A stretch of DNA of 64,000 nt from Gemmata massiliana. GTDB taxonomy: Bacteria; Planctomycetota; Planctomycetia; Gemmatales; Gemmataceae. This document shows, in pieces, positions 36,448 through 49,909 of this stretch (position 1 is the first letter of the stretch; each line of letters begins with the position of its first letter). Under the pieces are notes generated by a model. The model ran no database searches. It saw nothing but the letters and a program-made list of their open reading frames with translations, and had not been told where the DNA came from. Location of the stretch: contig NZ_LR593886.1 of NCBI RefSeq assembly GCF_901538265.1, positions 7,647,738 to 7,711,737 on the forward strand, given 5' to 3'. A program made the position numbers and the translations under genes.

Positions 36448-36924
36448 CTACGGGCGCGTGATCCGCTCCGCCCATTCTTCAATCGCCTGGACGAACAGGT
36501 CCAGCGAACTCACTCCCAGTACCAGAACCATGCACCCGGTCACCTCGCTCGCGCGCACGCGGAACCGCGCACCGACGAGCAGCGCGTGCCGGATCTCGTC
36601 GTCCCCGATGACCAGGGAATCGAGCATCGAACCGAGCGAATCCAGGTGGAGCCGAGGGACCGCGAAAGTAAAACGCACTTGCAGCAAATCGCCGAACACA
36701 CCGAGGCAGGCGTTGAGCAAGATGTTCCCGACCTCGGCGAGCACCTCGCGGGCCGACGCTCCCATTTGCGCGGTCGGGGCGCCGGCATCGGCCAACAGGC
36801 TCACGAGTCGAGTGGCCCCTTCAATATCCAGCAAGAGAAACGCATCGCCCGAGACCGGGCCGCCGAAAATCTGGTGAACGGTCGCCACTTCTCCGCGCAC
36901 GAACCGGCTGAGTGCCGGGAGCAA
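36448..36924 (-). CDS. CheC-like protein, N-terminally truncated
   Basis: A frame of 158 residues from TTG 36924 matching the second half of CheC-type phosphatases: VSGDAFLLLDIEGATRLVSLL, then SAREVLAEVGNILLNACLGVFG (E-x-x-N-I-x-x-N active-site helix), RFTFAVPRL and VLVLGVSSLDLFVQAIEEW. The usual N-terminal about 60 residues, including the first E-x-x-N helix, are absent. Its 5' end overlaps the 3' end of the truncated cheA by 104 bp in another frame, indicating a deletion joining the two genes. It is probably non-functional or altered. Confidence 0.7.
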   Translation of the reverse strand: MLPALSRFVRGEVATVHQIFGGPVSGDAFLLLDIEGATRLVSLLADAGAPTAQMGASAREVLAEVGNILLNACLGVFGDLLQVRFTFAVPRLHLDSLGSMLDSLVIGDDEIRHALLVGARFRVRASEVTGCMVLVLGVSSLDLFVQAIEEWAERITRP

Positions 36925-38035
36925 CCCGCTGATGGGTTTCGCGTGTGAGATCGCGCACGACGAACCGCATCCGCGTGAATACGTCCCGTATGGGAACGAG
37001 GCGGACGCGCATCACCCCGTCGCGGAGCGTGCGCAACTGGCGCTCGACGGTCAGACTCGTCTCTTGCAACTCGCGCCGTTCGGCGGCCGGGAGCAGAGTG
37101 GATACTCGCCCCAAAACTCCATCGAGTCGCGCCCGTGTAATGACCAGTTCGCTGAGCGTTCGCATCAGTTCATCGAGTTTCCCCAGATCCACGCGGACGA
37201 TGTTACTGGGCGCGAGGGGGGCGGAGCGAGACGGCTCGACAACCGGTTCTGGGGTAGGTGACTCGTAAGACTCGACCCTCAACCCGTCGCCGGCAAAGTG
37301 GGACGGGAAATCCGCGTTCGAGCTGGTGACGAGGAACGCGAACGAGATTCCGCCACCGGGGACGGTGATCGGTTCGGCCCGGACGATCTCACCCGCGACG
37401 CGCAAGCGCTCGCGAACCGTGCTCACGTTCACCCCGCGCTCGGATAGAACCGGCGTCGGGGTGAACGTCACCCGCCACACCCGGTTACCCGCGCGCAGAA
37501 CTTCGGGTATGTGATCCGGTTTATCCGGTGGGTGCGCAGAACTGATTGGGGTTTGACGTCGAGTTGCGCTCGCGTTCGCGGTTGGTACGGCGTTCCCATT
37601 TGTTAGGGCCGTCAACTGCGCGATCAGCGCATTAAACTCGGGCGGCGGTGTCCCATCGCGCCGGGCGCTGATCGTGCCTTCGAGTGTTCGGGCACCCGCG
37701 ACAAGGGCGTCCACGCCCGCGGGAGTCAGCGACACGAGATTCTTACGAAGTGCGCCGAGGTACTCTTCCAAATGGTGCGCGAGTAACTCGGCTTCTCGTA
37801 CCGCGGCGATCCCGGACAACCCTTTGATTGTGTGGAAGTGCCGGAACAGACCGTCGAGGTGCTCGCGCCGGGCTTCCGCTGGGTTCGATTCGAGTTGAAG
37901 CAACAAACGCCTGGCCCCGGTCAGGTGCTCGTCGCACTCGACCAGATAGTCGGGGAACAGGTCGCTCGTATCAATCGGCTCGTTCGTCGGCACAGAGTTC
38001 AGCTTTGGCGTCGCGTTGATTTCGGAATCCGTCAC
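36821..38035 (-). CDS. CheA-like kinase, truncated before the ATPase domain
   Basis: A 404-residue remnant from GTG 38035 (TTG 38044 also possible). The Hpt domain is intact with phospho-His in FRHFHTIKGLSG (about 25-125). A Pro-rich linker, a middle domain and the dimerisation segment follow (IVRVDLGKLDELMRTLSELVITRARL, LQETSLTVERQLRTLRDGVMRVRLVPIRDVFTRMRFVVRDLTRET). At about 36934 homology ends: the HATPase and CheW-like domains of CheA are missing and 37 unrelated residues follow. It cannot autophosphorylate. The cluster below it (CheC fragment, kinase, receivers) is co-directional. Confidence 0.8.
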   Translation of the reverse strand: MTDSEINATPKLNSVPTNEPIDTSDLFPDYLVECDEHLTGARRLLLQLESNPAEARREHLDGLFRHFHTIKGLSGIAAVREAELLAHHLEEYLGALRKNLVSLTPAGVDALVAGARTLEGTISARRDGTPPPEFNALIAQLTALTNGNAVPTANASATRRQTPISSAHPPDKPDHIPEVLRAGNRVWRVTFTPTPVLSERGVNVSTVRERLRVAGEIVRAEPITVPGGGISFAFLVTSSNADFPSHFAGDGLRVESYESPTPEPVVEPSRSAPLAPSNIVRVDLGKLDELMRTLSELVITRARLDGVLGRVSTLLPAAERRELQETSLTVERQLRTLRDGVMRVRLVPIRDVFTRMRFVVRDLTRETHQRVAPGTQPVRARRSGDRSPDFRRPGLGRCVSLAGY

Positions 38036-38223
38036 CAGAAGCAACTAAGGAATAATTACCCCAAAATTACCAATTTACCCAGATATCAAATTCGCATCCC
38101 GCGGCTCCGTAACGATGCTTAACCCACATCAGCACTGCAATCGATTCAATCCGCACATTTGAAAGACCGTCTGACAGGAGGTTACTCGGCGGACCCTGAA
38201 TAGGGCCGGATATGCCCTCATGA

Positions 38224-39103: not shown

Positions 39104-39997
39104 ATGTTCTGTGCCCCTCTGCTTTTCGCGCTCGTCGCGGCCGATCCCGCGCCGAAACCGTTCCCACTGTGGTCCGGCAAAGCGCCGCACGCGGTCGGAG
39201 ACTCGGCGACCGACAAACCGGAACTCACCGCGTACCGGCCCGCGAAGCCCAACGGCGCCGCGGTCGTCGTTTGTCCCGGGGGTGGGTACGGGTTCCTGGC
39301 CGACGACCACGAGGGCAAGCAGGTCGCGGAGTTCTTCACCAAGGCTGGGGTGACCGCGTTCGTGCTGAAGTACCGGATTGTGGGAAAGGACCGCCCCGGT
39401 CCGCTCGGCGAGGCCCCGCTCGCGGACGCGCAGCGCGCCATCCGCTTGGTGCGCGCGAAGGCGAAAGACTACGGCGTCGATCCCAAGCGCGTCGGCATCA
39501 TGGGCTTCTCGGCGGGTGGGCACCTGGCGAGCACCGCAGCCACGCATTTCGACAAGGGCGGATTGAAAAACGACGACGATGTCGAGAAGGAGAGCTGCCG
39601 TCCAGACTTCGCGATCCTCGCGTACCCGGTCATCTCGATGGAGGACGGCGTGACGCACGGCGGGAGCCGCAAGAACCTGCTCGGCGACAACCCGGGCGCG
39701 AAACTCATCGAGCTGTATTCGAACGAGAAGCAGGTGACGAAGGACACCCCGCCGACGTTCCTGTTCCACACGAGCGCGGACACGGCCGTGGTGCCCGAGA
39801 ACGCGGTGCGTTTCTACCTCGCGTGCAAGAAGGCCGGCGTGCCGATCGAGATGCACATTTACGAAAAGGGGTGGCACGGGGTCGGGTTGGGCCGCGACCC
39901 GAAGTGGACCGGCGGCGAGAAGTCGGTCGAGACGTGGCCCGATCGACTCCTCGATTGGATGAAGGCCCGCGACCTGCTGGGCAAGGCGGAAAAGTAA
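39104..39997 (+). CDS. Alpha/beta-hydrolase, acetyl-xylan-esterase-like
   Basis: A 297-residue secreted hydrolase with a short signal peptide (MFCAPLLFALVAADPAP). AVVVCPGGGYGFLADDHEG holds the oxyanion glycines, GIMGFSAGGHLAST the nucleophile Ser, FHTSADTAVVPENAV the Asp, and YEKGWHGVGL the His. FPLWSGKAPHAVGD near the N-terminus is typical of the BD-FAE/Axe-like group acting on acetylated carbohydrates. It is the convergent neighbour (4 bp) of the SGNH array and could in principle deacetylate what that array acetylates; this is inference. Confidence 0.88.
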   Translation: MFCAPLLFALVAADPAPKPFPLWSGKAPHAVGDSATDKPELTAYRPAKPNGAAVVVCPGGGYGFLADDHEGKQVAEFFTKAGVTAFVLKYRIVGKDRPGPLGEAPLADAQRAIRLVRAKAKDYGVDPKRVGIMGFSAGGHLASTAATHFDKGGLKNDDDVEKESCRPDFAILAYPVISMEDGVTHGGSRKNLLGDNPGAKLIELYSNEKQVTKDTPPTFLFHTSADTAVVPENAVRFYLACKKAGVPIEMHIYEKGWHGVGLGRDPKWTGGEKSVETWPDRLLDWMKARDLLGKAEK

Positions 39998-40001
39998 GTC
40001 G

Positions 40002-41252
40002 CTATTCGCGCGCCTTCGCCAACCAGGGGCGGAGGTGCGTGTCGGCGAACCACCGGCTGTACTTCGCGGCCCCGTCCGGGGTCAGGTGGTAGCCGTCAAC
40101 GAAGTCCTCTTCGGCGAAATGGGTCGGGGCCGGAAACACCGTGACCCCGACTTCGTCTACTAGCGTTTGGGTGTAATACTCGACGCGCCCGTGCGCACAC
40201 GGGCAGTACAACCCGCGCAGCCACGGCGATTCGGGAGCCCACACGACCGCGACCGTGATCCCCTCCATGCGGCACCGCGCCACCAAATCGCGTATCGCCC
40301 GGTCCGAGACGTCGCTGATGTCCTTGCGGTTGGTCACCCGGGCCTGTGCGCGTGCGTTCTCCCGCAATATTTCGCGCTTCGTTTCCCAGAGGTGTTCGAC
40401 CGGGAACCGGACGAAGCCGAACGAATCCATCTCTTCCCACGAACGGCTCTCGAACTTCACCGATCCGGCTCGCATGTCCGGGGCCACCTCGCCGACGATC
40501 GCGTCCCAGCGCACGGACCAGGGATTAATCCGCGCCGTTCGGAGTGCGCGGCGCAGCTCCGTTCCGCCCGCCTCGTAGGGCGCGAGCCGGCGGAGGTCGG
40601 CACCCGAAAGTCCGTCGCGCCGCGGCCAGGCTTGTACCTCGGCCGGTCCGCCCGTGACCGTTTCGGCTTGGCCGACAAACAGCAACACCGCACGGGGCTT
40701 CACACCGTCGTCGAGGGCACGAGCGAGTGTCAGCCACGAGACGAGCGGCGGCGCGGCGCGGTACCCGAAGTTGTAGACGACCGGTGCGCCGGGTTCGTCC
40801 GGGAAGTTCATTGCAGCCGGCGAGACGCCCATCTGGGCGCGCGACGAACCGAGGACCAGAACCAGCGGGCGCTCGGGGCGCTCCGCCTGCCACTTCTGCA
40901 CGTGCTTCAGCCGGTACGCATATTCCGGGTCTCGTAACTCCGGCTTCACCGTTTCTGATGCTATGGTCAGCGCGCCGGTGAGTACCGCGAACAATCCGAA
41001 CCCGATCCCCAGCGCGATCCGGGCCGACCGCCCCCGGTTCGTGAGCGCCGCGCGCGTCGCACGCAGAGTACGAGAGGAGCCGCCCGCGGTGCCGGTTTTG
41101 ACTTCCTGGTACCGGGCCGCAACGACCCGTTCCCGAGAAGCGTCGCTTTCGAGCGACCGCGCGTCGCCAAACCCGTCGCGGCGCTCGCGGAACGGGAAGA
41201 CGCGGGACAGTTGACCCAATATCAGCGAATTCAGGCGCGGCGAACCGGGCAT
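40002..41252 (-). CDS. Membrane-anchored SGNH-like protein, array copy 5
   Basis: A 416-residue protein, last of five paralogues. A long Arg-rich cytoplasmic N-terminus precedes one helix (ALGIGFGLFAVLTGALTIAS). Then come the family motif RDPEYAYRL, block I VLVLGSSRAQMG with the presumed nucleophile Ser, block II VYNFGYRAAPP, and block V DGYHLTPDG (D-x-x-H catalytic Asp/His). This is the AlgX/AlgJ/DltD/PatB-like SGNH fold, expected to face outward and accept acyl groups from an MBOAT. It starts 30 bp after copy 4 stops. The true start may lie further downstream. Confidence 0.8.
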   Translation of the reverse strand: MPGSPRLNSLILGQLSRVFPFRERRDGFGDARSLESDASRERVVAARYQEVKTGTAGGSSRTLRATRAALTNRGRSARIALGIGFGLFAVLTGALTIASETVKPELRDPEYAYRLKHVQKWQAERPERPLVLVLGSSRAQMGVSPAAMNFPDEPGAPVVYNFGYRAAPPLVSWLTLARALDDGVKPRAVLLFVGQAETVTGGPAEVQAWPRRDGLSGADLRRLAPYEAGGTELRRALRTARINPWSVRWDAIVGEVAPDMRAGSVKFESRSWEEMDSFGFVRFPVEHLWETKREILRENARAQARVTNRKDISDVSDRAIRDLVARCRMEGITVAVVWAPESPWLRGLYCPCAHGRVEYYTQTLVDEVGVTVFPAPTHFAEEDFVDGYHLTPDGAAKYSRWFADTHLRPWLAKARE

Positions 41253-41282
41253 CAGCGAACCTGGCGAAAGAAGTAAGTGTGC

Positions 41283-42410
41283 CTACCGAATAGACTCGAG
41301 CCACGGTCGGAGGTGCCGGTCCGCCAGCCCGCGACTGAACCGGGCGGCGGTGCGGCGCAGAGCATGGTGCCCGTCGGCGAAGTCCTCTTCCGCGAAATCG
41401 GTCGGCGCATCAAATACCGGGCACTTCAACTCGTCTGACAACATTCGCGCGAACGCGCCCAGCGCCGACCGGGACTCGGGCGAGTACCAGCTTTGGAAGA
41501 TCGGCGATTCGGGCGAGAGGTAGAACGCGACCGGGACGCCCGCGGCGCGGCAATCGCTCACGAGATCGCGGACCGCGCGTTCGGCCAGTTCACTCACTCG
41601 GAGGTCGCGGACCACGGGACCGTAACAAGCAAATGCGTAGTCCCGTTTGCGCTCGCGGTCCGCGGGGGAGACCGCTTGGGGGTACGCACTGAACCCCCAA
41701 GCGTCGGTCATGGTCCACTGGAACGCCACACGCTCCCGCCACGGTTGGAGCTCCGGTGCTAGGTGGCTGAGGATCGTCATGTGGAACGCCTCCCACGAGT
41801 TCACTCGCGTGCCGAGCCACCGGCGCCGGAGCGCGGCCGGGTCGTCGAGATACGGTTCCAGGCGCTTCAGATCGGTCGCGGTGAGGCGCGCGGGCTGGTC
41901 GAACAGGTCGTCGACGGAGCCGTGGTACGCGAGCGTCCCGGGGAGAATTTCGACCACAACCGCGGCCGGGCGCACGCCGTCATCGAACAGGCGCTGGAGC
42001 GTCAGGCGCAGGTGCGGCGGTCGGGCACCGGACTGCCCGAAATTGAACACGAGTGGCGATCCGGCTTCGTCCGGAAACTCCATCGCCGACGGGTCGATCA
42101 CGTTCTGTGTGCGCGACGTGCCGACCACGAGTACCAGCGGCCGGTCCGGGTGGGCACGCTGCTGCGCCCGCGTGCGCACGAGCCGGTAGCCGTACTCCGG
42201 GTCGCGCACTTGCGGCAGCGCCGTTTCAACCGAAACGGACAGGACCGCGTTCGCGACGAGAAGTGCAACCGCGCCCCACAACACCGTTCGCAGGGCGCGC
42301 CGGCGGGTTCTGGACCCGGACGAGGAAGATACTTGTACGACCACGGGTTTACGCAATTGAGGAACGAACCGTGAGCGAGTAAGGGGCGATGCGCCGGGCG
42401 CTTGGTTCAC
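41283..42410 (-). CDS. Membrane-anchored SGNH-like protein, array copy 4
   Basis: A 375-residue paralogue with a helix near residues 40-60 (LWGAVALLVANAVLSVSVETA). RDPEYGYRLV follows, then block I VLVVGTSRTQNV, block II VFNFGQSGARPPHL and block V DGHHALRRTA (D-x-x-H). The mid-region AFYLSPESPIFQSWYSPES shares P-E-S with the other copies. It overlaps copy 3 by 4 bp (ATGA), indicating translational coupling. Confidence 0.82.
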   Translation of the reverse strand: MNQAPGASPLTRSRFVPQLRKPVVVQVSSSSGSRTRRRALRTVLWGAVALLVANAVLSVSVETALPQVRDPEYGYRLVRTRAQQRAHPDRPLVLVVGTSRTQNVIDPSAMEFPDEAGSPLVFNFGQSGARPPHLRLTLQRLFDDGVRPAAVVVEILPGTLAYHGSVDDLFDQPARLTATDLKRLEPYLDDPAALRRRWLGTRVNSWEAFHMTILSHLAPELQPWRERVAFQWTMTDAWGFSAYPQAVSPADRERKRDYAFACYGPVVRDLRVSELAERAVRDLVSDCRAAGVPVAFYLSPESPIFQSWYSPESRSALGAFARMLSDELKCPVFDAPTDFAEEDFADGHHALRRTAARFSRGLADRHLRPWLESIR

Positions 42411-43543
42411 GGGGGCTCTCCGGGCGCGGGGAACGCGGCACTAATGGCACGGCCGAACCGCGCGGTAAACGCCCCGGCACCGGTGCGCGACAGGTGGTGA
42501 CCGTCCGCGAGTTGGTCTTCCGCCATCCAGTTCCGCGCGTCAATCGCTGGAACATCCACTTCGCGCACGAGGCCCGCGAAGTGTTCGCGGGCGGCACGTT
42601 CCACAGCGGGCGGGTACCAGCTCTGAAACTCGGGCGATTCTGGAAGATAGAAGAGGCCGACCCGCGCGCCTTGCGCACGAGCGAATGAAACGGCCTCGCG
42701 CAGCGCGCGATCCGAGTCCGGGTGGATCGCGTGCCCAGCGAACTGGCGCTGATAGTCGGGACGGTAGTGATCGAGGAACAGGCACCGGGTGTCCGCGTCG
42801 TCGGGTCGCACGTCCATTCCGGGCAACCACCCCCAACGGTCCAGTTCCCTCCAGGGCACGTTGGCGTGCTGGTTCATCGCGAGATACTTGGGTGACGCTA
42901 GTGCCAGCCACCGCTCCCGGTTCGCGAAGATCGGGTTCGCACGCGCGATAATCATCGAGCGCTCGGTGCGAGCGGAATCGCGGAAGTAATTGCGAACAAT
43001 GGGGACGTCATCAAATCGCAACCGCTGACCGACGCGGTACTGTTCAGCGAACGACCCGTCCTGGCGGAGCACCGGCGGCCAGTATTCGAGCAAGACGACC
43101 GTGGGGTGAAACCCGTCCGCATATGCGCGCCGGAGTGCGATCAGTTGCTGAATCGGTCCCGCTCCGACCGTTCCGAAGTTGAACAGGAGCGGATCGCTCG
43201 GCGTTCCGGGTCGCTCGGCTTCCCACGAATCCGGCTTCACACCCATACACGTGCGCGAGGAACCGAACACCAGCACGAGCGGTCGGCCCGGGTTTTCGGC
43301 AACGCGCTCGCGCAGGCGCGAAACGCGCTTCCCGTATTCCGGATCGCGCAGGTTCGGCCAGGGGGCGTCGAGTGCCACGAATGCCGCGACGTGCAAAAGC
43401 AGCGCGGCCGCGACAAACCACCCCAACGCGGTCCACGGCCGGCGCGGGCTTCGGCGCGTGACGCGATCAGGCGGCCGGAACAGCCCAACGAGGCGGAGTC
43501 GTGGGCGTGTTCGCGACGTATTCGGGAGGCAGGTCGCGTTCAC
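42407..43543 (-). CDS. Membrane-anchored SGNH-like protein, array copy 3
   Basis: A 378-residue paralogue: helix near residues 40-60 (LGWFVAAALLLHVAAFVAL), LRDPEYGKRVSRL, block I VLVFGSSRTCMGV, block II LFNFGTVGAGPIQQL, LFYLPESPEFQSWYPP, and block V DGHHLSRTG. All presumed catalytic Ser, Asp and His positions are retained. Start and stop are joined to its neighbours by 4-bp overlaps on both sides. Confidence 0.82.
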   Translation of the reverse strand: MNATCLPNTSRTRPRLRLVGLFRPPDRVTRRSPRRPWTALGWFVAAALLLHVAAFVALDAPWPNLRDPEYGKRVSRLRERVAENPGRPLVLVFGSSRTCMGVKPDSWEAERPGTPSDPLLFNFGTVGAGPIQQLIALRRAYADGFHPTVVLLEYWPPVLRQDGSFAEQYRVGQRLRFDDVPIVRNYFRDSARTERSMIIARANPIFANRERWLALASPKYLAMNQHANVPWRELDRWGWLPGMDVRPDDADTRCLFLDHYRPDYQRQFAGHAIHPDSDRALREAVSFARAQGARVGLFYLPESPEFQSWYPPAVERAAREHFAGLVREVDVPAIDARNWMAEDQLADGHHLSRTGAGAFTARFGRAISAAFPAPGEPP

Positions 43544-44688
43544 GACTCACCTCCGCGACAGAACCCCCGGAGCCACGGGCCGAGTTTTTCGCGCCCGAGC
43601 CGCTCGGTGAATACGTCCGCGCCGGCACCGCTCAGGTGATGGCCGTCCCCGAGGAACTCGTCCGCGATCCACTCGCGCGCATCGAAGAACGGCACGCGGA
43701 ACTCCTCCGCGAGTTCGGACACGAGCGGCACAATCTGTGAGCGACCCGGTTCCGGGAACCAACTGCGGAACTCGGTCGATTCGGGCGTGATAAGCAGAGC
43801 TGCGCGGATGCCGGCGGTGCGGCAGGTTTTGAGTGCGTCGCGCAAACCTTTCATCCCACTCCCGCCCGGTCGATAGTCGGCCCAGCAATCGGAATATTGT
43901 TTGCGGGTCAGTTCTCGCAGGCGCGCACGTTGAATTTCGGGCACTTCGGGAGTGCGCACAAAACCGTGCGGATCGGTCGCGTGCTCCGCAAGACGGAACT
44001 GCAAAGCTGAAAACACGGGCGCATAACGGTCGAGTAACTGAACGCGGTACTCGTGCCACGGTGTGATCCACCCGCGCGGGCCGTGAGTCGCGGGCGTGGG
44101 TATCGGAAGCCCGAGTTCGCTCACGAGCGCGAGCTCGTCTCGTCGTAAGCGGACGGGGTGAAGCCACCGCGCTTCCGGGGGCTGCGATGTTTGTGCCGCA
44201 AGGAATGCCGGGTGAACTTCAATTACCACCGCACCCGGCTTCACGCCCGCTTTCAGCAATCGGCGCAGGTACACCGCGGTGGTGACAGGGCCGGCGCCGG
44301 CGTGTGCGAAGTTGAATACCTCAACGGGCGTGCCGAGGTCGTGCGACAGGGCTGAACTGAGGGTTCCGGCACCAATCGCGTCGAACGTGCGCGAACTGCC
44401 GAGGAACAGGAGCGTCGTCTGACCGTTGTTCTCGCTCGCGAAGCCCGAATGCGTGCGAAGCAGAGCAAGCTTATCACTGTACTGCGGATCGCTGAGCGGT
44501 ACGCGATCGGTGCGTGCGATCCACCCGGTTGCAAGTTGGATTGTCAACGCGACCGCGAAGCCGAACGCGACCGCGAGGGCCGCGCCGCGTGCCTTCTGCC
44601 CGTGGGCGAAGTGTAGACGGCGTGATGGTTCCGCACCCGTTTGCGTCAGGCGCGGGAGCCGAATCGCGGGTGCGGTGACCGCCATCAA
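43540..44688 (-). CDS. Membrane-anchored SGNH-like protein, array copy 2
   Basis: A 382-residue paralogue with a helix (GAALAVAFGFAVALTIQLATGW), SDPQYSDKLALL, block I LLFLGSSRTFDAI, block II VFNFAHAGAGPVTT, ALLITPESTEFRSWFPEPG and block V DGHHLSGAG. Block II ends in Ala instead of Gly, the only deviation seen among the motifs. It overlaps copy 1 and copy 3 by 4 bp each. Confidence 0.82.
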   Translation of the reverse strand: MMAVTAPAIRLPRLTQTGAEPSRRLHFAHGQKARGAALAVAFGFAVALTIQLATGWIARTDRVPLSDPQYSDKLALLRTHSGFASENNGQTTLLFLGSSRTFDAIGAGTLSSALSHDLGTPVEVFNFAHAGAGPVTTAVYLRRLLKAGVKPGAVVIEVHPAFLAAQTSQPPEARWLHPVRLRRDELALVSELGLPIPTPATHGPRGWITPWHEYRVQLLDRYAPVFSALQFRLAEHATDPHGFVRTPEVPEIQRARLRELTRKQYSDCWADYRPGGSGMKGLRDALKTCRTAGIRAALLITPESTEFRSWFPEPGRSQIVPLVSELAEEFRVPFFDAREWIADEFLGDGHHLSGAGADVFTERLGREKLGPWLRGFCRGGES

Positions 44689-45833
44689 CGCCCCTCCCGC
44701 GAACTTCGCGCGCGAAGGAAGGGGAGAATCACGTCCTCCGCGAGCCGGTCCGTGAAAGTTGTGGCCCCGGTGCGCAACAGGTGGTGGTTATCGAGGAACA
44801 CGTCGTCGGCGATCCAGGTTCGTGCGTCGGTGAACGAGCACCCGAATTCGGTCGTCAGTTCGGCAAAGAATCGCGCCAGTTTCGATTCCACTGATGCGGG
44901 ATAAAGTGCGCGGAACGTGATGGCTTCGGGGAAAACTACGAGCGCGACGGGAATGTGTTCGTCGCGGCACAGCGTCAGCAAGTCGCGCAGCGCAGCGACG
45001 GACGGGCCAGCGGGGAGTTCGTGCTTAAAGAGATCGCGGTACTCGGCTGTCGCCCCCGCAATCCCCTTTTGGCGCTGCTCGTCACCAACCGTTTCGACAT
45101 CAGAAGCGTTCCAGCCGTTCGGGTCCGGGGTGCGGCCCCAGTCGTACCGGAGCTGCCACGGCAGCGCACTGGGGAAGATTCGACCAACTAGCTTGAAACG
45201 GTGTTCGTAAAGGGGCGAGAGTGCTGCGTCGCGCCACTGCCGGCGCAGGCGCTCTGTCGGCATCGCGTACCGGTCTACGGCTTCGATTTCCCCGCGTGTA
45301 AGGAGATCGCCTTTGAGCATCCGCGCTTCAAACGGACCATCGGGCAGGTCCACGAGTAGCGGCGGGAGCACTTCCAGAATGAGCAGGCCCGGGCGGTGAC
45401 CGTCGGCCAACAGGCGCTTCAGGTAGATCAGGTGCGTGATCGGCCCCGCGCCGGGAACGCCGAAGTTGAACACCACAGCCGGCGAACCGGCTTCTGTCGC
45501 CGCGGCTTGCACGCGCCCCGCAACGAATCCGTACCCCGTGCGTGAGGTGCCGAGCAGGATTACGCGCGGCGCGCCGGTCGGAGCCGCGCGTTCGAGGCGA
45601 CTGAGCCGGCGCTCTTTGTCGCCGTAAACCGGGTCGGCGATCAAATGCGTCACGATCGAGGCACCTGACAGCACCACCTGAATCGCGACGAACGCCAACA
45701 CCCCGGCCACGACCGCAACGACGGCTCCCCGGCGCGCGAACCCGCGTGTCGCAAGCGCTCGCGACCGCTTCGTGAGAAGGGGTTTGAGCCAATCGAAGGT
45801 GAGGTGGGTCAACTTCACGTCACGGGCCGCCAT
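44685..45833 (-). CDS. Membrane-anchored SGNH-like protein, array copy 1
   Basis: A 382-residue paralogue and the first after the MBOAT gene (76 bp gap). The helix is at 36-58 (GAVVAVVAGVLAFVAIQVVL), followed by ADPVYGDKERRL, block I VILLGTSRTGYGF (G95-T-S-R98), block II VFNFGVPGAGPITHL, and block V DNHHLLRTG (D-x-x-H). VVFPEAITFRALYP replaces the P-E-S segment of the other copies. Copies 1-4 share the phrase GAGP or GARP after block II, which copy 5 lacks. Confidence 0.82.
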   Translation of the reverse strand: MAARDVKLTHLTFDWLKPLLTKRSRALATRGFARRGAVVAVVAGVLAFVAIQVVLSGASIVTHLIADPVYGDKERRLSRLERAAPTGAPRVILLGTSRTGYGFVAGRVQAAATEAGSPAVVFNFGVPGAGPITHLIYLKRLLADGHRPGLLILEVLPPLLVDLPDGPFEARMLKGDLLTRGEIEAVDRYAMPTERLRRQWRDAALSPLYEHRFKLVGRIFPSALPWQLRYDWGRTPDPNGWNASDVETVGDEQRQKGIAGATAEYRDLFKHELPAGPSVAALRDLLTLCRDEHIPVALVVFPEAITFRALYPASVESKLARFFAELTTEFGCSFTDARTWIADDVFLDNHHLLRTGATTFTDRLAEDVILPFLRARSSREGR

Positions 45834-45909
45834 CCGGTGCAGCGCGGGTCAAAGTGTAGCTCGGTGGAGCGGACGTGTCGCCCGCCGCCACCGAGGTCGT
45901 ACCCGAAAC

Positions 45910-47442
45910 TCAAAACTGGAAGTAGATGAACGTGGTGCCATTGTCCGGCGCCAGTACGAGCGCGGTGCAAAGGCAGATCGCGTAGCCCCCGCCCAGCACC
46001 GGGGCCGGCAGGCGCGGGTAGATCTTCGCCCACAGGCCGGACCTCACGAGCCACTGGCACGCGAACAGGAACACGACCGTGTACCACAGGCTGCGGTTGT
46101 TCATGTCCAGCTTCAGCCCGCGCTGGATGTGGAACAGTTTCTCGAAGATGGCGAACGCCTTACTCAACTCGGGCTGGAATAGAACCCAACACAGGCTCAC
46201 GCACAGGAACGTGAAGAAGATCCGCAGGCCCGTACCGAACGCCGTTTCCAGGAAGGCGGTGAGCCGCGGCCTGTCATCGCAGAAGTCCTTGAATTGCTTG
46301 TGGCCCACAAGCATCGCACCGTGCGCGAACCCCCACAGGAGGTAGCCCCAGGCCGCGCCGTGCCACAACCCGCCGACCGTCATCGTGATGAGCAGGTTGC
46401 GGTAGTTGAGCCAGCGCGACCCGCGGCTCCCGCCGAGCGGGATGAACACGTAGTCGCGCAGCCACGACGAGAGCGAGATGTGCCACCGGCGCCAGAAATC
46501 GGACACGTTGGTGGCCAGGTACGGCATGTTGAAGTTGTTGATGAGCTTGTAGCCGAGCAGGTGCGCGGCGCCGACGGCCATGTCGGAGTAGCCCGAGAAG
46601 TCGCAGTAAATGCGAATCGCGTAGGCCAATACCGCGAACCACACCGCGACCGAGTTGTACGCTTCCGGGTCTTTGAACACCGGGTCACAGAACATCGCCA
46701 TCCGGTCCGCGATCGCCATTTTCTTGAATGCGCCGACCAGGAAGAGCTGGACCCCGACCTGCACGCGGACCCAGTTCCACCGCTTCGGGCGCCGGGTCTG
46801 CGTAAGGAAGTCACCGGCCCGGACGATCGGCCCGGCAACTAGGTGCGGGAAGAACAGGATGAACAGCAGGAACCGCGGGAGGCTCTTTTCCGGCTGGATC
46901 TTCCGCTTGTACACGTCGACCGCGTAGCTGATCGCCTCAAACGTGTAAAACGAGATACCGAAAGGGATAAAGATCGCGAGCGGGTTCAGTTTCTCGTAGC
47001 CCGGCTCCATGCCGAGTTTCACCATTCCGTCGAACAGTTCGTTCAGGAAGAACCCGCGGTACTTGAAGTAGCAGAGAATCCCGAGGTTCATGCCGACGCT
47101 GGTGTACAGAATCAGCTTGCGGAACCGCGGTCGCTCGGACGAACCCATCATTCGACCGAACAGGTAGTCCGCGAACGTCGTTCCCGTGACCAGGAACGCC
47201 AGTTCGTAGCTCCACGCGGCGTAAAAGTGGAAGCTCGCGACCACGAGCAACCAGATCCGCGTCATCGCGAAGCGCCGCGGAATGCTCCAGTACACGAGCA
47301 ACACGAGCGCGAAGAACGCGAGAAACGCCTGCGTGTGGAAGAACGGGGCCGGCAGCAGGTCGTGGAGCCAACGGAAATACGCGAACCCGGATTGGTACAC
47401 CGGTTCCGCGGTAGTGTGCGTGGTCGATGCGAGCAGAGACAT
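45910..47442 (-). CDS. MBOAT family O-acyltransferase (AlgI-like)
   Basis: A 510-residue multi-pass membrane acyltransferase. Family landmarks are PHLVAGPIVRAGDFL, FWRRWHISLSSWLRDYVFIPLGGSRGS, and NLLITMTVGGLWHGAAWGYLLWGFAHG with the conserved catalytic His in L-W-H-G. Start ATG 47442 has AAGGA about 9 nt upstream; 47466 is an alternative. MBOATs such as AlgI move acyl groups from the cytoplasm across the membrane for O-acylation of glycans by SGNH partners. It leads an array of five such partners, so it is probably the shared translocating component. Confidence 0.95.
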   Translation of the reverse strand: MSLLASTTHTTAEPVYQSGFAYFRWLHDLLPAPFFHTQAFLAFFALVLLVYWSIPRRFAMTRIWLLVVASFHFYAAWSYELAFLVTGTTFADYLFGRMMGSSERPRFRKLILYTSVGMNLGILCYFKYRGFFLNELFDGMVKLGMEPGYEKLNPLAIFIPFGISFYTFEAISYAVDVYKRKIQPEKSLPRFLLFILFFPHLVAGPIVRAGDFLTQTRRPKRWNWVRVQVGVQLFLVGAFKKMAIADRMAMFCDPVFKDPEAYNSVAVWFAVLAYAIRIYCDFSGYSDMAVGAAHLLGYKLINNFNMPYLATNVSDFWRRWHISLSSWLRDYVFIPLGGSRGSRWLNYRNLLITMTVGGLWHGAAWGYLLWGFAHGAMLVGHKQFKDFCDDRPRLTAFLETAFGTGLRIFFTFLCVSLCWVLFQPELSKAFAIFEKLFHIQRGLKLDMNNRSLWYTVVFLFACQWLVRSGLWAKIYPRLPAPVLGGGYAICLCTALVLAPDNGTTFIYFQF

Positions 47443-47681
47443 TACCAACCGTCCTTGGTTGCGCATTGGCGCGGACGGGGAACTCGCTGAGACCCGCCGC
47501 GGGCGGGGACTATAGCGGGATTATGAGAAGTGGGTCAATGCCGGGTCTTGGGGAAAGACCCGCTCCGTGATTCCTTCCCTAAGACATACAGGGGAACGGG
47601 ATTAATTGCGGTACACAGCCACCGGCTTCCGTTTCGCCCGGCAAACAACGGGCGAGCGAAACGAGCGCGAAGGGGTTTTCG

Positions 47682-48811: not shown

Positions 48812-49261
48812 GTGACCGACGACGAATTCCTGACCGCGTTCGAGGAGTGCAGTCTCGTGCGAACCGACTGGACGCACGAAGCCCACATCCGCATGGCGTG
48901 GCTGTACTTAATGCGGGGTAATGCTAGGGCCGAGGCGCTTGACTGCGTGCGAGGCGGCATCCAGAAGTTGAACGCGACGTTCGTCCATCGCGACCAACTG
49001 GAGAACCCGAACCGACCGCCCAAGCCCAAAGATCCACGCGGGTTGGATGGTTACCACGAGACCGTTACCGTCGCGTTCGTGACCGTGATCGCGTCTCGGG
49101 TAAAAGCTAACGAGGATTTCGCCGCGTTTCGCACTCGCAATCCCGATCTCTTCAACCGCAATCTTTCGGCACTTCTGCGGCACTACACACCCGAACGACT
49201 TTATTCCCTACCCGCCCGAACGGAGTTCCTGGAACCCGATTTGGAACCTTTGCCGGGATGA
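48812..49261 (+). CDS. Small protein of unknown family, tandem copy 1
   Basis: A 149-residue soluble protein with a GTG start and GGAGGG ribosome binding site. Conserved features shared with its tandem copy are WTHEAHIRMAWLYL near residue 22 (H-x-x-H), a helix GGIQKLNA, YHETVTVAFVTVIASRV near residue 83, FRTRNPDLFNRNLSALLRHY, and FLEPDLEPLPG at the end. The H-x-x-H and Y/F-H-E-T motifs could bind metal. I recall similar uncharacterised proteins in other bacteria but cannot name a family. It follows purM by 56 bp. Confidence 0.75.
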   Translation: MTDDEFLTAFEECSLVRTDWTHEAHIRMAWLYLMRGNARAEALDCVRGGIQKLNATFVHRDQLENPNRPPKPKDPRGLDGYHETVTVAFVTVIASRVKANEDFAAFRTRNPDLFNRNLSALLRHYTPERLYSLPARTEFLEPDLEPLPG

Positions 49262-49426
49262 GCACTTGCGTTCGGGGCGGTCGCGATCGCACCTGTTCTT
49301 TTGTTACGCTACGGAGATGGTGGCCCGTGATTTGATGGGGTATATGGGTGGGAAAGAATGATTGGGGGAGCGAACCTCTCCCTCAACAAACTTGTCCACT
49401 CAACCACCCGTCCGGAGGAACCGCCG

Positions 49427-49909
49427 ATGACTGACAGCGAATTCCTGACCAAGTTTGAAAATCGCACGATCACCCGCGAGGAGTGGACGCACGACGCCCA
49501 CGTCCGCATGGCGTGGCTCTACGTAACGCGAAGCGACAACTACCGCACCGCCCGGAGCAAGGTGCGGACCGGCATCAAGAAGCTGAACGCCGCGTTCATC
49601 GCCCAGGAATCCCGGCCGTGCGGCGCGACCCGACCGGCCGACGCGAGCACGGAACCCGCGGCCGAATCCAAGCCCATCGGCTTCCACGAAACCATTACGA
49701 CGGCGTTCGTTCGGGTCATCTCGATGCGGGTCGAAGCCGGGGAAAAGTTCGCCAGTTTCCGCAAGCGCAACCCCGATCTCTTCGACCGCAACCTCTCGGC
49801 GCTCCTGGCCCACTACTCGCCGGCCCAACTGTTCTCCGAAGAAGCGAAGATCAAGTTCGTTGAACCGGACCTCGAACCGCTCCCGAAGCCGTGGCTCGCC
49901 CGTGTGTGA
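49427..49909 (+). CDS. Small protein of unknown family, tandem copy 2
   Basis: A 160-residue paralogue of the preceding gene, starting at ATG 49427 with GGAGG 8 nt upstream. It keeps EEWTHDAHVRMAWLYV, GFHETITTAFVRVISMRV, FRKRNPDLFDRNLSALLAHY and FVEPDLEPLP, with an inserted Ala/Pro/Thr-rich loop (SRPCGATRPADASTEPAAES). It does not have the sequestering hairpin of copy 1. Function is unknown. It is convergent with the glycosyltransferase gene, 12 bp away. Confidence 0.75.
   Translation: MTDSEFLTKFENRTITREEWTHDAHVRMAWLYVTRSDNYRTARSKVRTGIKKLNAAFIAQESRPCGATRPADASTEPAAESKPIGFHETITTAFVRVISMRVEAGEKFASFRKRNPDLFDRNLSALLAHYSPAQLFSEEAKIKFVEPDLEPLPKPWLARV

What the first reader, a model, noticed from the sequence alone, without database searches (positions are those of the whole stretch)
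40002..47442. One MBOAT acyltransferase with a tandem array of five paralogous SGNH-like proteins
Seen: five consecutive minus-strand genes share one membrane helix, a D-P-x-Y motif after it, G-[ST]-S-R (block I), F-N-F-[GA] or Y-N-F-G (block II) and D-x-x-H (block V). They follow an AlgI-like MBOAT, and copies 1 to 4 are joined by 4-bp ATGA overlaps. Known: MBOAT/SGNH pairs (AlgI with AlgJ/AlgX, PatA/PatB, DltB/DltD) O-acylate glycans or teichoic acids, normally with one or two SGNH partners. Inference: one shared translocator feeds five diverged transferases, giving position- or glycan-specific acylation of a planctomycete envelope polymer, or acyl removal by some copies. I do not know of a described system with this layout.
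Basis: partly seen in the sequence, partly recalled or inferred. Interest (0 to 1): 0.72.

Follow-up and report, generated by a model that had tools for sequence, protein, structure and literature searches.

The report
One acyl donor, five transferase genes
A planctomycete operon encodes one membrane protein that probably carries acyl groups out of the cell on a tyrosine tail, followed by five related enzymes that probably attach those groups to surface polymers; the subtypes and their gene order are kept across the family Gemmataceae, so the layout looks like an old, maintained division of labour.

Summary
Window 40002-47466 (minus strand) holds one MBOAT gene followed by five paralogous SGNH genes. 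It is not a local oddity. MBOAT-plus-SGNH arrays occur across Gemmataceae (2-5 copies on uncut contigs; at least 3 in 18 of 61 sampled genomes). Their SGNH genes fall into ancient subtypes A1, A2, B and C, which follow the MBOAT in the same order in 25 of 25 loci and in one held-out genome. The nucleophile motif GxSR is present in 94 of 94 copies and the D-H pair in 91 of 91 that reach it; all five window copies are under purifying selection. AlphaFold models of copies 1 and 5 (pLDDT 94 and 91) match DltD best. The MBOAT resembles DltB but its longer C-terminus ends in FIYFQF, the FxYxxF acyl-tyrosine shuttle shown experimentally for PatA. The only other MBOAT found in this genome lacks that tail.

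Most likely one acyl-Tyr tail supplies several dedicated transferases; acyl-CoA is the inferred donor, because no true DltA was found. Subtypes A1, A2 and C are lost separately while B is kept, which argues against an obligatory five-step relay. Polymer, acyl group and specificities are unknown. This is a new variant of the known MBOAT-SGNH kind.

The parts
45910..47466 (-). MBOAT acyltransferase, first gene of the operon; catalytic-His motif GLWHGAAWG; C-terminus FIYFQF (acyl-Tyr shuttle motif FxYxxF)
   Evidence: Pfam MBOAT 2e-34; DltB-related, NCBIfam 1e-48 below cut-off and PDB DltB 6bug E 1.3e-28; tail conserved in relatives; motif function in PMC12148441
44685..45833 (-). SGNH-like copy 1, subtype A1
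   Evidence: AlphaFold pLDDT 93.8, best PDB match DltD
43540..44688 (-). SGNH-like copy 2, subtype A2; overlaps copy 1 by TTGA, or starts at the ATG in TGATG
   Evidence: DUF1574 43.1 bits, above cut-off
42407..43543 (-). SGNH-like copy 3, subtype B (the subtype found in every locus whose array is not cut before it); overlaps copy 2 by GTGA
41283..42410 (-). SGNH-like copy 4, subtype C; overlaps copy 3 by GTGA
40002..41252 (-). SGNH-like copy 5, subtype C (diverged)
   Evidence: AlphaFold pLDDT 90.7, best PDB matches DltD
47509..47538 (-). Single sigma-70-like promoter match just upstream of the MBOAT start
   Evidence: one found against a shuffle mean of 1.0, so only suggestive

Best explanation
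This is an envelope-polymer acylation operon of the MBOAT-SGNH kind with a one-to-many layout. Inferred mechanism: (1) the MBOAT uses its catalytic His to take an acyl group, probably acetyl, from acyl-CoA in the cytoplasm and puts it on the tyrosine of its own C-terminal FIYFQF tail outside the membrane; (2) the tail docks in turn with any of the membrane-anchored, DltD-like SGNH proteins and passes the acyl group to the serine of GxSR; (3) each SGNH passes it from serine to a hydroxyl of its own acceptor. The subtypes act in parallel on different positions or polymers: B is the core transferase, and A1, A2 and C are optional. Shown: gene layout, motifs, fold class, conservation, order, retention pattern. 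Inferred by homology: steps 1 and 2. Inferred only: parallel specificity, and acetyl as the acyl group.
For: Gene layout and coupling. FIYFQF tail and WHG motif in the MBOAT; an FxYFxF tail is kept in the Gemmataceae homologues whose contig reaches the C-terminus. The same motif in PatA is auto-acetylated at its Tyr by acetyl-CoA, and PatB uses the acetylated peptide as donor (PMC12148441). The only other MBOAT (PF03062) hit in the genome ends in LLFVKV, without the motif. No DltA above cut-off. DltD is the top PDB fold match for both modelled copies. GxSR in 94/94, D and H in 91/91. dN/dS 0.12-0.22 for the five copies. Deep subtypes, constant order in 25/25 loci, repeated in a genome left out of the classification (G037/L075). 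Subtype residues next to the catalytic His and in the E-x-x-P loop. A1, A2 or C is missing in different genomes while B is in all 24 loci whose array is not cut before it.
Against: No biochemistry. No polysaccharide-synthesis gene is a conserved neighbour, so the acceptor is unknown. Retention of all copies would also fit a relay or a multi-subunit complex. The lone sixth SGNH and scattered copies in other genomes show that operon linkage is not required. AT3-type acyl donors in this genome were not searched.
Confidence: 0.62

Rival explanations
1. Relay or complex: the SGNH proteins hand the acyl group from one to the next, or form one multi-subunit transferase, as proposed for AlgI to AlgJ to AlgX; all present copies are needed for one product.
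For: AlgJ and AlgX are both required and non-redundant for alginate acetylation (PMC4148444). Conserved order and translational coupling fit a complex with fixed stoichiometry.
Against: A1, A2 and C are each missing in some genomes while the rest stay (B+C only in L016 and L036; A1+A2+B only in L027, L030 and L042; A1+B+C in many). All copies keep the full triad.
Confidence: 0.2
2. Redundant paralogues of one activity, kept for dosage or as a reserve for divergence.
For: Subtype C has lineage-specific duplicates (L018 has three C copies).
Against: A, B and C are older than the sampled genera, with constant order and subtype-specific residues near the active site; purifying selection on every copy.
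Confidence: 0.1
3. Some copies are esterases that remove the acyl groups added by others (writer and eraser in one operon, like Ape1 beside PatA/PatB).
For: Operons with transferase and esterase exist (PatA/PatB/Ape1, PMC12148441). SGNH folds do both chemistries, and fold matches include acetylesterases.
Against: All copies keep the same architecture: N-terminal membrane helix, GxSR, block V. Best fold match for both modelled copies, one from subtype A1 and one from C, is DltD, a transferase. No copy shows a distinct esterase signature.
Confidence: 0.08

Closest known systems
PatA/PatB peptidoglycan O-acetylation (PMC12148441)
   Same: MBOAT with catalytic His and C-terminal FxYxxF acyl-Tyr shuttle; separate membrane-anchored SGNH partner with canonical Ser ... 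Asp-x-x-His order; operon
   Different: One SGNH transferase per MBOAT (plus Ape1); here up to five SGNH paralogues of another, uncharacterised SGNH family
DltB/DltX/DltD teichoic acid D-alanylation
   Same: Closest solved MBOAT relative is DltB; closest solved fold of the SGNH copies is DltD
   Different: No DltA over cut-off, no DltD-family hit; the shuttle motif is on the MBOAT itself, not on DltX; five SGNH genes
AlgI/AlgJ/AlgX alginate and WssH/WssI cellulose O-acetylation (PMC4148444, PMC9487903)
   Same: One MBOAT serves more than one SGNH-like protein
   Different: AlgJ and AlgX are circularly permuted (H before S) and AlgX has a carbohydrate-binding module; here order is S then DxxH and the partners are paralogues in tandem
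Plant RWA / TBL wall O-acetylation (PMC6110886)
   Same: Few multi-TM acyl translocators supply many one-TM SGNH-like transferases with different acceptors
   Different: Unrelated translocator (not MBOAT), Golgi, no operon; analogy only
DUF1574 (PF07611), SGNH clan, no known function (PMC9487903)
   Same: Copy 2 scores above the Pfam cut-off (43.1 vs 29.1 bits) and the other copies weakly over the GxSR/NFG region
   Different: Four of five copies are below cut-off; matches are N-terminal only

Membership tests
Bacterial MBOAT-SGNH acyltransferase system (PatA/PatB type) | MBOAT with catalytic His in WHG | tested here: met
   PF03062 2e-34; GLWHGAAWG; aligned to DltB around that His
Bacterial MBOAT-SGNH acyltransferase system (PatA/PatB type) | C-terminal FxYxxF acyl-shuttle motif on the MBOAT (or on DltX) | tested here: met
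   C-terminus FIYFQF; residues 438-518 lie beyond the DltB-like part
Bacterial MBOAT-SGNH acyltransferase system (PatA/PatB type) | Extracytoplasmic SGNH partner with Ser, Asp, His triad in canonical order, one N-terminal membrane helix | tested here: met
   GxSR 94/94 and D, H 91/91; long N-terminal helix and SGNH-type fold in models; side-chain distances not measured
Bacterial MBOAT-SGNH acyltransferase system (PatA/PatB type) | Acyl transfer from acyl-CoA via Tyr to Ser to polymer | not testable with these tools
   needs biochemistry
Dlt D-alanylation system | DltA ligase (with its carrier DltC) | tested here: not met
   no hit over the DltA cut-off; best 221 of 560 bits. DltC was not searched
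Dlt D-alanylation system | DltD family profile (PF04914) | tested here: not met
   no hit in the genome while controls ring
Dlt D-alanylation system | DltB equivalog cut-off (TIGR04091) | tested here: not met
   166.5 of 375 bits
AlgI/AlgJ/AlgX | Circularly permuted SGNH (DxH motif before Ser) | tested here: not met
   Ser97 precedes D348/H351; permutation described in PMC9487903
DUF1574 (PF07611) | Score over the Pfam gathering cut-off | tested here: inconclusive
   copy 2 over, copies 1, 3, 4 and 5 under

The most novel reading that the evidence does not exclude
A bacterial 'one donor, many writers' acylation system: one acyl-tyrosine tail is shared by up to five operon-encoded transferases, each writing a different position or polymer, so that subtype gain and loss tunes an acylation pattern of the planctomycete envelope.
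Probability: 0.4. Interest if true: 0.7.

Novelty: new variant of a known kind. Interest (0 to 1): 0.52.

Why it matters
Systems described in the papers found here pair one MBOAT with one or two SGNH proteins. A conserved one-to-many array makes a clear question testable: how one acyl-Tyr tail chooses among several acceptor enzymes, and whether bacteria write acylation patterns the way plants do with RWA and TBL proteins. It also gives a likely function to SGNH proteins related to DUF1574, a family with no known activity, and points to an unknown acylated polymer in Gemmataceae.

Tried and rejected
Pfam and NCBIfam give no functional name for the SGNH copies, and a profile search of PDB sequences finds no credible relative, so fold comparison was needed. 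Neighbour search for polysaccharide-synthesis genes: only purM upstream (12 loci) and a BD-FAE esterase downstream (4 loci) clearly recur, so the substrate cannot be read from context. DltA/DltC-fed D-alanylation considered and rejected as most likely. AlgJ/AlgX membership rejected on domain order. Recent tandem duplication of the whole array rejected by the tree. Papers on Gemmata O-acetylation and on planctomycete MBOAT/SGNH systems: nothing relevant in the held library. Phylum-wide search outside the family: only three weak single hits in 195 other genomes (only the 10 best candidates per genome were scored).

Full report
What is there. On the minus strand of window 40002-47466 lie one MBOAT gene and five paralogous genes. 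The window is part of a 10.1-Mb single-contig genome. Its closest named relative among the fetched MBOAT loci is Gemmata sp. IIL30, 98% identical over the MBOAT. The five paralogues align end to end with invariant D-P-x-Y, G-x-S-R, N-F and D-x-x-H positions. Junctions are tight: GTGA twice, TTGA or TGATG once, 30 bp before copy 5, 76 bp after the MBOAT. Codon-position GC and dN/dS of 0.12-0.22 against L009 show that all five are real genes under purifying selection.

What the proteins are. The MBOAT matches Pfam MBOAT at 2e-34 and is nearest to DltB among solved structures (6bug, 1.3e-28; alignment covers residues 153-437). It has about 80 more residues at the C-terminus, ending in FIYFQF. Anderson et al. 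2025 (PMC12148441) showed that PatA acetylates the Tyr of such a C-terminal FxYxxF motif with acetyl-CoA, that this needs the MBOAT His, and that PatB uses an acetylated hexapeptide as donor. The tail is kept in the Gemmataceae homologues whose contig reaches the end of the gene. The only other MBOAT family hit in this genome ends in LLFVKV without the motif. AlphaFold models of copies 1 and 5 are confident (pLDDT 93.8 and 90.7). In both, DltD is the best match in the PDB, and SGNH esterases also match. E-values are modest (1e-4 to 5e-5) and whole-chain TM-scores about 0.45, so this shows the fold class, not close kinship. The serine sits after strand 1 and D-x-x-H before the last helix, in canonical SGNH order, unlike the permuted AlgJ/AlgX.

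Conservation. A scan of a collection of 84,980 species genomes with the MBOAT gave 64 loci. In Gemmataceae the MBOAT is followed by two to five SGNH genes where the contig is not cut (one exception, L025, has none), and by one in two Isosphaeraceae loci; a third has one on the other strand. Among 94 such SGNH sequences, GxSR is present in 94 of 94 and the block V D and H in 91 of 91 that extend that far. In a sample of 61 genomes of the same family, 41 have the SGNH family and 18 have an array of at least three next to the MBOAT; fragmented assemblies make this a lower bound. Deeper genera of the family have several MBOATs, each with one or two SGNH genes. Outside the family, a phylum-wide draw found only three weak single hits. 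Among more distant MBOAT relatives, mostly from other phyla (L043-L072), no tandem SGNH paralogues were seen downstream: the only tandem paralogues in L046 look like MFS transporters, and the single L045 pair is overlapping ORFs that were not identified.

Ancient subtypes in fixed order. A maximum-likelihood tree divides the SGNH genes into A (A1, A2), B and C, with strong support for most deep branches. In all 25 loci with two or more classified copies the order after the MBOAT is A1, A2, B, C(C), with members missing but never exchanged. These loci share ancestry, so this is conservation, not 25 independent events. A genome left out of the classification (G037, locus L075) has A1, A2, B, C in that order. 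B is present in all 24 loci whose array is not cut before it, while A1, A2 and C are each absent in some. Subtypes differ at residues beside catalytic positions: the residue before the catalytic His is Phe in most B and His in most A1, A2 and C, and the E-V/Y-x-P loop carries Leu (A1), His (A2) or Trp (B) (residue numbers printed there are one too high).

Mechanism. Shown elsewhere for PatA/PatB: CoA to Tyr to Ser to polymer. Here the same parts are present in homologous form, so steps CoA to Tyr and Tyr to Ser are likely. There is no true DltA over cut-off and no DltD-family protein, so acyl-CoA is more likely than D-alanyl carrier protein. With one shuttle-bearing MBOAT and five coupled SGNH genes (plus a lone sixth at G000:C1:439755), the simplest model is one tail that serves several transferases. 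The loss pattern, with B kept and the others lost independently, favours parallel action over an obligatory five-member relay. It does not prove it: a shorter relay or optional complex members remain possible.

Comparison with what is known. In PMC4148444, known systems are grouped as one-protein, two-protein and four-protein types, the last with two SGNH proteins. I found no description of an MBOAT with three to five tandem SGNH paralogues in the held library. The nearest functional parallel is plant RWA/TBL acetylation (PMC6110886), which is an analogy and not homology. I rate it a new variant of the MBOAT-SGNH kind.

Limits. No polymer, acyl group or acceptor is identified; flanking genes do not help. 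AT3-type donors in the genome were not searched. The library holds only open-licence papers.

Noticed in passing
window 36821-38044 (-): CheA-like gene with Hpt and dimerisation domains but no ATPase domain; the open frame ends soon after the dimerisation domain, so it may be frameshifted or truncated, next to a weakly CheX-like gene (36448-36924).
   Followed up: partly
window 48812-49261 and 49358-49909 (+): Two tandem, similar small proteins without any Pfam match, next to purM.
   Followed up: no
window 39104-39997 (+): BD-FAE-type esterase convergent with the array, kept beside it in the window and three close relatives (L009, L010, L012); could remove the acyl groups, but not conserved further.
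   Followed up: partly
L073 8741-9787 (G000:C1:439755-440690): Lone sixth SGNH paralogue with intact triad, without a nearby MBOAT, close to an AcrB-type pump and a DUF4058 gene; would have to share the array's MBOAT.
   Followed up: partly
L074 6073-8614 (-): Second MBOAT of the genome lacks the FxYxxF tail and overlaps a 420-aa open frame with no Pfam match.
   Followed up: partly
L077 4644-8673 (-) (G031): MBOAT flanked by one SGNH gene on each side, both placed near subtype A: another arrangement of the cassette.
   Followed up: no
L033: Contig labelled Bacteroidales carries a typical Gemmataceae A1-A2-B-C array; probably a misbinned contig.
   Followed up: no
L025 9893-11488 (+): Close MBOAT homologue (69% identity) with the tail but no SGNH copy of this family within 10 kb.
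   Followed up: no
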